Shown one piece after another: positions 60,322 to 63,435 of a stretch of DNA of 64,000 nucleotides. The position numbers and the translations under genes were made by a program. The notes under the pieces are model-generated. The model was not told the origin of the DNA and did no database searches. It saw only the letters and a program-made list of their open reading frames with translations. The DNA comes from Enterocytospora artemiae (taxonomy: Eukaryota > Microsporidia), in assembly GCA_038659295.1 (NCBI GenBank), contig JASNGC010000004.1:62001-126000 (forward strand), given 5' to 3'. Position 1 is the first letter of the stretch; the number at the start of each line of letters is the position of its first letter.

Positions 60322-61199
60322 TCTTATTAATAAAGCTCTCGTCTTCAGTAATTATAGACTTATTTTTTGATTTTAGTTGACTTTTATGAATACTCAATAA
60401 AGCAATTGTTTTTGAAAATAGTAAGAAAAGATAGTTGACAACAGAATATGTATTTAATCATTGAATTACTAATTTTTATACAACCTTATGATCTCATTCC
60501 ACTAAATGAGGTCTGAGTCATTTACAGTGTGTTGATAAATTTATGTAATAAAGCAATGTAGATATTTCATACACGATTATTATGCTGAATTTAAAGTTAA
60601 TCCACCGTGGCTGTATACCACTATTTTATTCTTTGTTACGTCATCAGAAAATACTCGATCCCCTCAGAACTCATCAGCAAAACCTATGTGAGCCTTTATA
60701 ATTACCTAGTTGAGAAGCCATTCAGGAACACATGGTTTGTGGTTTTTATTCTTTACAATAGGTATATGAAATCTTCTTCTATATCACTTCTATGTTGCAA
60801 GAAACTTTATTCATGCTCTGAAAGCTTTATTGAAGCCGTTACTTTTGTGAATGCTATTTCTGCATGCAAATTCTTATTATCAAGCTCCATTACAAATTAT
60901 CGAATCACTTTTGATTTCTTCGGTTCATTTGATTTTCCTTTTCCGCTCATTACTACGCTTAATTCCTCAATCAACCTGTTATTTTTAATGTATTTCACAT
61001 CCATTCATACTGGAGTAATACGGTTAAATATGGGCAACATACCTGGAAAATTCTGCAACAAGATTTAATTCTTCTCACTTGAACTATCTTCCGATTTCAA
61101 CTCCAATTGTTCACTTCATAGTCTTTATTATTACCATTTCAAAAATACCGAAAACATCCATTCACATTCTAGATCTATACCATCTAATATTCCCCTATT
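60322..61199. other. Degenerate region, no intact gene
   Basis: Plus-strand frames at 60607-61068 and 61079-61450 begin with GTG or TTG and lie opposite decayed sequence. The minus strand shows coding-like fragments broken by stops, for example MSGKGKSNEPKKSKVIR near 60910-60955 followed by a stop. A 9-bp hairpin lies at 60490-60513. Confidence 0.45.
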
Positions 61200-61885
61200 T
61201 TATCTCCAACACAAACTTCTATCACCGTTCTCACCTCTTGCAAGCCAACTTAACAATCTTTTCGCCTGTATCAAATCCACTTCTTTTCCTTTTTGCTCCA
61301 AAAAATATTTGGCTTGCCAGTCTTGTGTTGCTAATGCTTGTTTACTCTGTCTTCACCCAGGGCGGATATACTCGAATTCCTCTCTTTCCTGCAGAAGACA
61401 TGATCCCATGCTGCACCAGAACCATCTTCGGGAACATGAAATACCCATGATTGGCTCCATCTCGAGTCGTCACGACAATGAGGACAATCCCATCTTTCTC
61501 ATCATATAGCCGTGTTCTCTTACCATCTCTGACCCACAACGTCACAAATTGTCCATTCTTAGTTGGTGTTATCTTGCTGCAACGGAATTTTATCCGTTGT
61601 CCGTTAAGACACACATCACTACCACCGTATTCTCCTCTCCACATCTTTTTCCAGTGAAGAAGTCTTAAACAATCCAAGAGGCTCAAAAATCATCTTAATA
61701 ACTTCTGAATGGTCATTTCTTGACTCTTCACATTTTCCAACCTCATTGCTCAATATTGGTTCCTCTAAGATTCGTCAATCCTTATACTCTACATTAATTG
61801 GCTCCATATCCAATGTTCTCTTTGATCCTGTCTTTTCCTCCAACTTCTTCTGTTTCCATCCACTTACATTCGCCTTTTCGCCCAT
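61200..61885 (-). pseudogene. Broken gene with bacterial MepB-type domain
   Basis: An ATG at 61885 with CCC five bases upstream opens a frame with a basic N-terminal extension. It meets an in-frame TGA at 61775-61777 (codon 37). Past it the frame continues to about 61637, where a +1 shift moves it into the frame 61344-61635. That frame has KITPTKNGQFVTLWVRDG, FMFPKMVLVQHGIM and GKRGIRVYPPW, the core of the MepB family (fR.aKiTPtK.GqFVtlW, F.FPk..L...gI, RvYP.W). A second +1 shift near 61347 restores a MepB-like tail (KQALATQDWQAKYFLE) that runs to TAA at 61200. MepB proteins are bacterial, known from the S. aureus mepRAB operon and of unknown function. One stop and two shifts make this most likely a dead gene. 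Confidence 0.8.
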
Positions 61886-62034
61886 TCAAGGGCATTTCAA
61901 AATGCAAAGCCTATTTTGGTGATATTCTTTACTCTACCTAAAAGATCTAAAGACCTGTGTCTAGCTTACATCCATAAGGAGTTAAAATTTTCAACACTGG
62001 CATATGTTCATACTTTATTGACTGTTTGAATACC

Positions 62035-62172
62035 TTAACTATTAAATATACATCCAGAGATATCAAGTGATTCTGTTTTATAATTACCACTAATAAGCCT
62101 GCTTTCTCCTGGTCGGCCAAAATTATTATCTCCAATGCTCACTTCAATTATTTTTTTATGCCTATGGATCAT
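62035..62172 (-). pseudogene. Short coding-like frame (45 codons), possible remnant
   Basis: ATG at 62172 with GGG eleven to thirteen bases upstream opens 45 codons (IEVSIGDNNFGRPGESRLIS near the start). The frame then ends at TAA, and coding-like fragments continue in other frames. It lies just 3' of the remnant at 62204-62634 and could be its tail or an independent peptide. No family is recognised. Confidence 0.25.
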
Positions 62173-62203
62173 GTTAAAAAACCCTGTAACGGTCGCTTAT
62201 ATC

Positions 62204-62634
62204 TTATTTTTTAATTTGGGAAACCATTTCCGCATATTTTCTATTTCTTTTACAGAGTTGTAAGAAGATAACTCGTTTTTTCCAAGTTGTGAGAGTGCTG
62301 TGATATTCTCTAACATTGTTGGCCTCTTCTGATGCTTCTTGATATATCTCAAATATAGACAGCACACTATTTTGATTTAAATCATTTTCATCAAAACAGA
62401 AGAATGTCTTCAACTCTAGAATCTTTAGTAATAATTCTGAAAAGGCTAACACTATTCCTCTATGGCCTTGAATTAAACTATATTCTAATATTGTTGTTAC
62501 TGATATCAAAAAACTCAGACAGTTATTCAATGCTTGAGTAATGTATTTATCTTGCTATTACAGAGATAATACTTTAATTCAAGATATTTCAAATATACCA
62601 AAATAGTCCTATTGACTATCTCTACTACATCCAT
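62204..62634 (-). pseudogene. Unknown gene remnant with frameshift
   Basis: ATG at 62634 opens about 34 codons (MDVVEIVNRTILVYLKYLEL) and then stops. From about 62550 a second frame without its own ATG continues 115 codons (ALNNCLSFLISVTTILEYSL ... KRNRKYAEMVSQIKK) to TAA at 62204. Both parts are helical and coding-like, and they adjoin, so I read them as one gene broken by a frameshift. No family is recognised. Confidence 0.4.
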
Positions 62635-63105
62635 TGTATCATAAAAATAATCTTAAAAAATCTACAATCTTTTGGTTCTATACACTATCCAAGGATTCGT
62701 TTTGTAGGCTAACTGAGTTAATGATGGTTAAAGTGTCAATAGCTAATGTTATTTAAGTCTGTTGTATAGATCCTATAGAAGTAGGAAAGAATGTAATATT
62801 CTATTTTTTCATCTTCAAATAACTTAATAAAGTGAATATCTTCCTGGCAAACCTTAATTTATCATCCTTTTATATCACAATATCTAGAGATATCTATGAA
62901 CCAACAATTAATTTTAAAGCATGGTTATTAATATTGTATGATCTGATCAATATTAACATTCTTATTCCATTAATGAAAAGCAACTATCCATCCCTGTTCT
63001 AAGTATCACATAGAATATTTATTAAATTATATCGCATTCTAATTAATTTTAAGACAGACTTGTAGTGACAAATTCAATAAAATATTTTTTTATCTTTCTG
63101 CCCAC
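62635..63105. other. Intergenic, nothing recognised
   Basis: AT-rich spacer between the 62204-62634 remnant and the gene at 63106. No ORF with start signal was seen. Confidence 0.4.
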
Positions 63106-63435
63106 ATGCCTAGTGAGAGTGTATTTTTTCCTCTTGCAAATTCTCATGCCACTCAGATTTTTTTCAGTTTGACCTTCATTAGTCTGTGTGGGTTTGGTTT
63201 CATTTATCTTTGTATTTTTATATCCAGACTCAAAGTCGGTTTGAAGATATCATTTATGTGTAGTTTCCTATCTATTTGTAATTTTGTAGCAGCGAGTATT
63301 TTGAGACATTGTATGCATCATCCTGAATTACTTAATCTTAAGCACCTTTTATGTGGGAATGTAATGGTTCTTATCCAGATATATTGCTGGTGTGAATTCT
63401 TAATACATGGAATGTTAATACGTAGAATGGGATGA
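63106..63435 (+). CDS. Small membrane protein (109 aa), unknown
   Basis: The ATG follows CCCAC, a typical start signal. Three hydrophobic helices lie at about residues 15-38 (QIFFSLTFISLCGFGFIYLC), 48-65 and 82-104, separated by short basic or His-rich loops (RHCMHHPELLNLKHLL). It does not resemble the paralogous pair at 1-399 and 59980-60321. No family is recognised. An intact frame and start signal set it apart from the decayed sequence around it. Confidence 0.5.
   Translation: MPSESVFFPLANSHATQIFFSLTFISLCGFGFIYLCIFISRLKVGLKISFMCSFLSICNFVAASILRHCMHHPELLNLKHLLCGNVMVLIQIYCWCEFLIHGMLIRRMG

What the first reader, a model, noticed from the sequence alone, without database searches (positions are those of the whole stretch)
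61200..61885. Decayed gene with a bacterial MepB-type domain in a microsporidian
The frame at 61344-61635 carries the MepB core, and its tail continues in another frame after a +1 shift. The 5' part has a microsporidian-type start signal, so the gene had been fitted with host signals before it decayed. MepB is a bacterial family of unknown function, so this suggests horizontal transfer followed by loss. The upstream extension (basic, about 80 codons) is not part of bacterial MepB.
Basis: partly seen in the sequence, partly recalled or inferred. Interest (0 to 1): 0.8.

Follow-up and report, generated by a model that had tools for sequence, protein, structure and literature searches.

The report
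Dead bacterial gene in a microsporidian
A broken copy of a bacterial gene called MepB lies beside, and probably inside, the wreck of one of a microsporidian parasite's own repeat-protein genes, so a bacterial gene seems to have entered this very small genome and then died.

Summary
Frame 61345-61689 matches Pfam MepB-like (PF08877) with 102 bits against a cut-off of 27 (profile 5-104); profile 105-122 follows in another frame, 61203-61352. One copy was found in the 3.0 Mb microsporidian genome. As assembled it cannot give a whole MepB.

Upstream on the same strand (62591-61913) is a decayed relic of this genome's LRR gene family. Weak LRR similarity resumes beyond MepB at 60990-60881, in order and on the same strand (E 0.25-0.9). 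MepB thus probably lies in an insert of about 0.9 kb in a dead LRR gene, which speaks against a chimera.

Nine of the 120 listed homologues carry an organism name, all Bacteroidota. Trees lean to a Chlamydiota-rich part of the family, but AU tests leave the donor open. The core's composition is foreign, the tail's is not. The extension has no MepB similarity; its ATG has the host's CCC signal, modest evidence of former use. Reads and sister genomes could not be examined. A new member of a known kind.

The parts
61345..61689 (-). MepB core: open frame of 115 codons carrying profile positions 5-104 of PF08877; homology starts near 61635
   Evidence: 102.3 bits, cut-off 27; 58% identity to the nearest known relative over 98 columns
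61203..61352 (-). MepB tail (SKQA..TQDWQ..YF and C-terminal helix) in the frame reached after a +1 change
   Evidence: PF08877 profile 105-122, 14.4 bits, below the cut-off alone; best score reached by 0 of 200 shuffles
61622..61774 (-). Probable N-terminal piece of MepB in a third frame; similarity only in about 61710-61635
   Evidence: No Pfam match; no hit at E 0.01 or better, weak match at the place of MepB N-termini, 3 of 200 shuffles reach it
61775..61777 (-). TGA stop in the upstream frame
61778..61885 (-).
   Evidence: No Pfam match; no similarity to 197 MepB proteins
61886..61905 (-). Upstream of that ATG: CCC start signal of the host type
   Evidence: 16 of 23 host ORFs against 101 of 2,347 other ATGs
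61913..62591 (-). Decayed relic of an LRR-family gene (left arm), several frames and stops
   Evidence: nhmmer E 2.2e-52 for 62449-61956 and 2.5e-6 for 62591-62455; pairwise with L093 to 61913
60881..60990 (-). Probable continuation of the same LRR gene (right arm) beyond MepB
   Evidence: Best nhmmer hit of the LRR C-terminal profile in 64 kb, E 0.25, next hit 1.5; 27 of 31 bases with L091; exact 17-mer shared with L101
60991..61912 (-). Presumed insert of about 0.9 kb that carries MepB
   Evidence: LRR arm on one side and probably on the other; GC 0.30-0.48 in 100-base blocks, mostly above the flanks

Best explanation
A MepB-family gene came from a bacterium into the chromosome of a microsporidian, possibly a mite-associated one. 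It landed, as a stretch of about 0.9 kb, in a member of the genome's mostly subtelomeric LRR gene family that was dead or died then. It may for a time have been read from a host-type CCC start. It is now a pseudogene: the domain lies in two, probably three frames, so the assembled sequence cannot give a whole MepB protein and most likely does nothing. Shown: the homology, the broken frames in the assembly, a single copy found, a microsporidian genome, the LRR relic upstream. Probable: LRR on both sides, bacterial donor. Inferred: former expression, order of events.
For: PF08877 at 102 bits with the profile's end in another frame. One copy found by the family search and by a search with P0050. 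LRR relic at 62591-61913, E 2.2e-52, and LRR-like right arm at 60990-60881, top hit of the C-terminal profile in the window. The 9 organism names among the 120 listed of 1,257 homologues are all bacterial. In bacteria MepB is found in 90 of 72,556 plasmid records, and 3 of 6 viewed stretches also hold a transposase gene, two of them close by and one about 2.2 kb off (flanks differed and one record is unannotated), so it looks like a mobile accessory gene. GC3 of the core is 0.46, above all 128 host blocks of 100 codons (max 0.45). The core departs from 6 of 33 columns conserved at 90%, reached by 1 of 196 homologues, as expected after loss of constraint.
Against: The right LRR arm is weak alone: E 0.25-0.9, next-best hits close behind, and only 2 of 4 LRR copies beat all shuffles. 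No target-site duplication was found. Composition is foreign in the core only: GC3 of the tail is 0.32 and of the N-terminal piece 0.35, within the host range, and the core's excess GC is in all codon positions. Most invariant MepB residues survive (18 of 19 at 98%), so decay is recent or breaks could be assembly errors; one frame change lies near a run of five T. The donor is not resolved: AU p 0.258 and 0.298 for alternatives.
Confidence: 0.75

Rival explanations
1. The gene is intact in the organism and the breaks are assembly errors; the microsporidian has a working MepB.
For: 18 of 19 columns conserved at 98% are kept; one frame change is near a run of five T; CCC start signal before the ATG at 61885.
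Against: Two frame changes would have to be errors, and a TGA as well if the gene starts at 61885; the core-to-tail change lies in a stretch without runs of four or more; the extension has no homology; the LRR neighbour is also decayed.
Confidence: 0.1
2. A piece of bacterial DNA fell into the chromosome and was never a working gene in the host; the CCC-ATG is chance.
For: Foreign composition of the core; the 5' extension has no MepB similarity; location beside or inside an LRR wreck; 4 of 175 ATGs in the surrounding 4.4 kb have the CCC signal.
Against: No second bacterial gene was recognised: 10 frames of the surroundings gave no Pfam match above a cut-off. The CCC signal is on the furthest-upstream ATG of the frame that leads to the N-terminal piece. 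Tail and N-terminal piece have host-like GC3.
Confidence: 0.35
3. MepB was a domain of a fused LRR-MepB protein of the host, all of which decayed together.
For: Same strand and same order: LRR, MepB, LRR.
Against: MepB was found once while the LRR family gives 44 matching stretches; by eye the LRR relic is more broken than MepB (not counted formally).
Confidence: 0.07
4. Contamination or chimeric contig.
For: GC step at the stretch.
Against: Flanked by host LRR-family sequence upstream and probably downstream, in a contig of 386 kb that also bears a microsporidian rRNA gene.
Confidence: 0.03

Closest known systems
MepB-like family PF08877 (solved relative: PDB 4lqe, MepB)
   Same: Same domain over profile 5-122 in two frames, with the RxxKITPTKxGQFVTxWxR, GKRGIRVYPPW and TQxWQxxYF signatures; the core matches 4lqe by sequence, E 7.3e-12.
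   Different: Broken into frames, in a eukaryote; 58% identical to the nearest known relative. That 4lqe is the S. aureus protein I infer from a cited title.
Bacterial gene transfers into Microsporidia, e.g. nucleotide transport proteins named among transfers in Trachipleistophora hominis (PMC3486916, passages seen)
   Same: Bacterial-type gene inside a microsporidian chromosome.
   Different: Those are described as functionally important; this one is broken and of another family. The paper calls such transfers relatively rare.
Microsporidian LRR gene families with many fragments (T. hominis, Spraguea lophii; passages seen)
   Same: Expanded LRR family with decayed members.
   Different: Kinship of this family to those was not tested; here one relic probably carries a bacterial insert.

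Membership tests
MepB-like (PF08877) | Score above the curated cut-off (27 bits) | tested here: met
   102.3 bits for the core alone
MepB-like (PF08877) | Cover of the whole profile | tested here: met
   5-104 in one frame; 105-122 in another, at 14.4 bits
MepB-like (PF08877) | Near-invariant residues of the family | tested here: met
   25 of 27 columns at 95% and 18 of 19 at 98% kept; 6 of 33 at 90% lost
MepB-like (PF08877) | Endonuclease-like fold | not tested
   No fold predicted; known to me only through a cited title
Pseudogene | Frame broken in the assembled sequence | tested here: met
Pseudogene | Breaks present in raw reads; no full product | not testable with these tools
   No reads or transcripts held
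Bacterial gene transfer into a microsporidian | Lies in the host chromosome | tested here: met
   Host LRR relic upstream, probably also downstream; microsporidian genome; no read-level proof
Bacterial gene transfer into a microsporidian | Nested among bacterial sequences with an identified donor group | tested here: inconclusive
   In a Chlamydiota-rich set, 97/85, but AU p 0.258 for the other side; many rows unnamed, named rows drawn from bacterial collections

The most novel reading that the evidence does not exclude
A bacterial MepB, a family described as related to endonucleases, was once a working gene of this microsporidian lineage with a host CCC start, and intact copies may still serve sister parasites. 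The nearest unnamed relatives in the first tree (P0097, P0050) could come from such parasites or from bacteria that share their host cells.
Probability: 0.25. Interest if true: 0.6.

Novelty: new member of a known kind. Interest (0 to 1): 0.42.

Why it matters
One genome paper calls gene gains from elsewhere relatively rare in Microsporidia and suspects contamination behind one set of bacterial-looking genes (PMC3486916, passages). A dead gain beside, and probably inside, a host gene-family relic is hard to explain by contamination. It suggests that gains can fail, and it gives a place where the age and fate of one transfer can be tested in sister genomes. No paper with both MepB and microsporidia was found in the held library.

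Tried and rejected
Insertion marks: the longest direct repeat between the edges is 8 bases; 207 of 500 shuffles have 8 or more. Viral source: no confirmed hit in viral contigs for three queries; with P0097 as query, 7 of 50,697 phage records hold a relative, at 31-38% identity. Naming the organism: a protein search with an insulinase found no close relative (best hit 27% over 95% of the query). The ATP/ADP translocase is 84% identical to a protein labelled as from Medioppia subpectinata (an oribatid mite by my recall), which I read as a microsporidian contaminant of that assembly, and 54% and 50% to Nucleospora and Pancytospora. No closely similar MepB is among the best 120 of 1,257 proteins, so no intact microsporidian orthologue was found; the other 1,137 were not seen. 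Placing the donor: two trees, both with few columns (102) and an unsettled bootstrap; AU tests leave it open. Rows were thinned by identity (101 of 196 kept in the first tree); in the second, two long rows, L090 and L058, were also dropped and six plasmid rows added. Four genes presumably occur twice among the 77 loci (L014/L027, L015/L029, L018/L028, L023/L030) before thinning, so counts (196 of 197 rows) and 85 include these repeats. A programmed frameshift was considered because both frame changes go the same way; nothing was found for it and it was not tested.

Full report
What is there. A search of the whole genome with the MepB model PF08877 finds one place, on the minus strand at window 61315-61635 (104.7 bits, one TAA read through by the tool). 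The stop-free frame 61345-61689 carries profile positions 5-104 at 102.3 bits, and the frame 61203-61352 carries 105-122 at 14.4 bits. The tail's best score against 197 MepB proteins was reached by 0 of 200 shuffles. A third piece at 61622-61774 has a weak match at the right place (3 of 200 shuffles reach it; no hit at E 0.01 or better). The upstream 36 codons have none (197 of 200 shuffles reach their best score). So core and tail are certain, the N-terminal piece probable, and the extension unsupported as MepB. A TGA stands at 61775-61777.

The host. The genome has 3,015,070 bases in 5 contigs. The microsporidian small-subunit rRNA model matches over its full length in five places, 1,279 nt each; that model also rings in 9 of 14 prokaryote controls, so length and the next point matter. 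TLC-type ATP/ADP translocases match in five stretches, with 0 of 14 controls. I infer a microsporidian close to one that contaminated that mite assembly.

The setting. A DNA search with the surroundings gives, besides the place itself, ten further pieces; four of these places were read and are copies of one gene family. One copy matches LRR models in Pfam, and its protein matches 44 stretches in the genome, the window relic included, a lower bound; 36 of the 44 lie within about 36 kb of a contig end, taking the lengths of C1 and C5, which no call shows, as inferred. In the window the relic runs from 62591 to about 61913 on the minus strand, in several frames with stops. Beyond MepB, 60989-60959 matches L091 in 27 of 31 bases and 60930-60909 in 20 of 22. 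With the LRR C-terminal profile this right arm is the best hit in the 64 kb, E 0.25 (next 1.5); with the full profile it ranks third after the two left-arm pieces, E 0.9 (next 4.3). At protein level it ranks third among stop-to-stop pieces of at least 12 codons, after two left-arm pieces, E 0.27, with a piece from another gene close behind at 0.38. In pairwise tests 2 of 4 copies beat 200 of 200 shuffles; for the other two, 97 and 44 of 200 shuffles were as good. Because place, strand and order also fit, I take the two-sided LRR frame as probable, not proven. It puts MepB in an insert of about 920 bases where, by my reading, the LRR gene should have some 60-110. No target-site duplication was seen.

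Age and origin. The core's GC at third positions is 0.46; the highest of 128 host blocks, from 23 ORFs of the window, is 0.45 (mean 0.30). Against a simple reading: positions one and two are high as well (0.50, 0.43), and the tail (0.32) and N-terminal piece (0.35) are host-like at third positions; these are short. MepB genes of 32 Chlamydiota rows have a median of 0.35 (0.25-0.53), of 40 Bacteroidota rows 0.28 (0.16-0.49) (repeats included, frames taken from stop to stop, phyla after the named locus from which each search began). The core departs from 6 of 33 columns conserved at 90%, which 1 of 196 homologues reaches; at 95% it is 2 of 27 (8 of 196 reach this) and at 98% 1 of 19 (15 of 196). 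This fits recent loss of constraint after long constraint. MepB is found in 35 of 232 genomes of the Chlamydiota, 31 of 395 of the Bacteroidota and 4 of 398 of the Pseudomonadota, and in 90 of 72,556 plasmid records. Of six plasmid stretches viewed, three also hold a transposase gene: two next to MepB and one about 2.2 kb away with two genes between; flanks were 200 bases in five and 2,500 in one, and one record is all but unannotated. In the first tree the core stands with P0097 and P0050 (98/90) inside a set of 27 rows with 21 Chlamydiota (95/94). In the second, with plasmid rows added, it pairs with P0097 only (97/70), inside 32 rows with 19 Chlamydiota (97/85). Holding it on the other side costs 16.3 log units but is not rejected (p 0.258), and holding it with Chlamydiota alone is not rejected either (p 0.298). 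The donor is therefore open. Of the 120 listed homologues 9 bear organism names, all Bacteroidota; the named loci come from a collection of bacteria and archaea only.

Start signal. CCC just before the ATG is a known microsporidian signal (PMC2803860, passages seen). Here it precedes 16 of 23 ORFs of at least 200 aa and 101 of 2,347 other ATGs; in the surrounding 4.4 kb 4 of 175 ATGs have it. The ATG at 61885 has it; the core's own ATG at 61644 does not. The 56 codons from 61885 to 61718 hold one stop where shuffles give 4.6 on average (P 0.050). This is modest support that a host-type reading frame once led into MepB, no more.

What it does. As assembled, no whole MepB can be made. A solved relative is 4lqe. 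A link of S. aureus MepB to nucleic acids and endonucleases I saw only as a discussion line and a cited title in PMC9722764 (passages; the original is not held). I infer no role for the former gene beyond that.

Literature. No held paper has both MepB and microsporidia and none has PF08877. Of 11 papers with MepB and horizontal gene transfer, none is on microsporidia by its title (listing only). PMC3486916 (passages) calls transfers into microsporidians relatively rare and reports LRR fragments in T. hominis; PMC3749934 (passages) reports 97 LRR ORFs in S. lophii, 52 of them apparently complete.

Recounting changed some supporting facts (the transposase distance, the composition of tail and N-terminal piece, the count of named homologues, the collections' bias); I left the odds as they were, since none of these decides between the readings.

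Noticed in passing
window 63043-63435 and L002 6013-6432: Two neighbouring small frames share near-identical stretches (LRQTCSDKFNKIF, PLANSHATQ), which suggests a local tandem duplication of an unknown gene.
   Followed up: no
G000:C4:34932-36563 (L091): An LRR-family copy that is open apart from one in-frame stop, while similar copies on C5 (4678-6309 and 308711-310342) show none.
   Followed up: no
G000:C2:542006-543701 and C2:598515-600210: Two LRR copies with equal scores in opposite orientation about 55 kb apart, which suggests an inverted duplication.
   Followed up: no
G000:C1:134159-140102: Three TLC-type ATP/ADP translocase genes side by side.
   Followed up: no
P0241 (labelled Medioppia subpectinata): A protein in a mite assembly is 84% identical to this microsporidian's ATP/ADP translocase: probable microsporidian contamination of that assembly.
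   Followed up: partly
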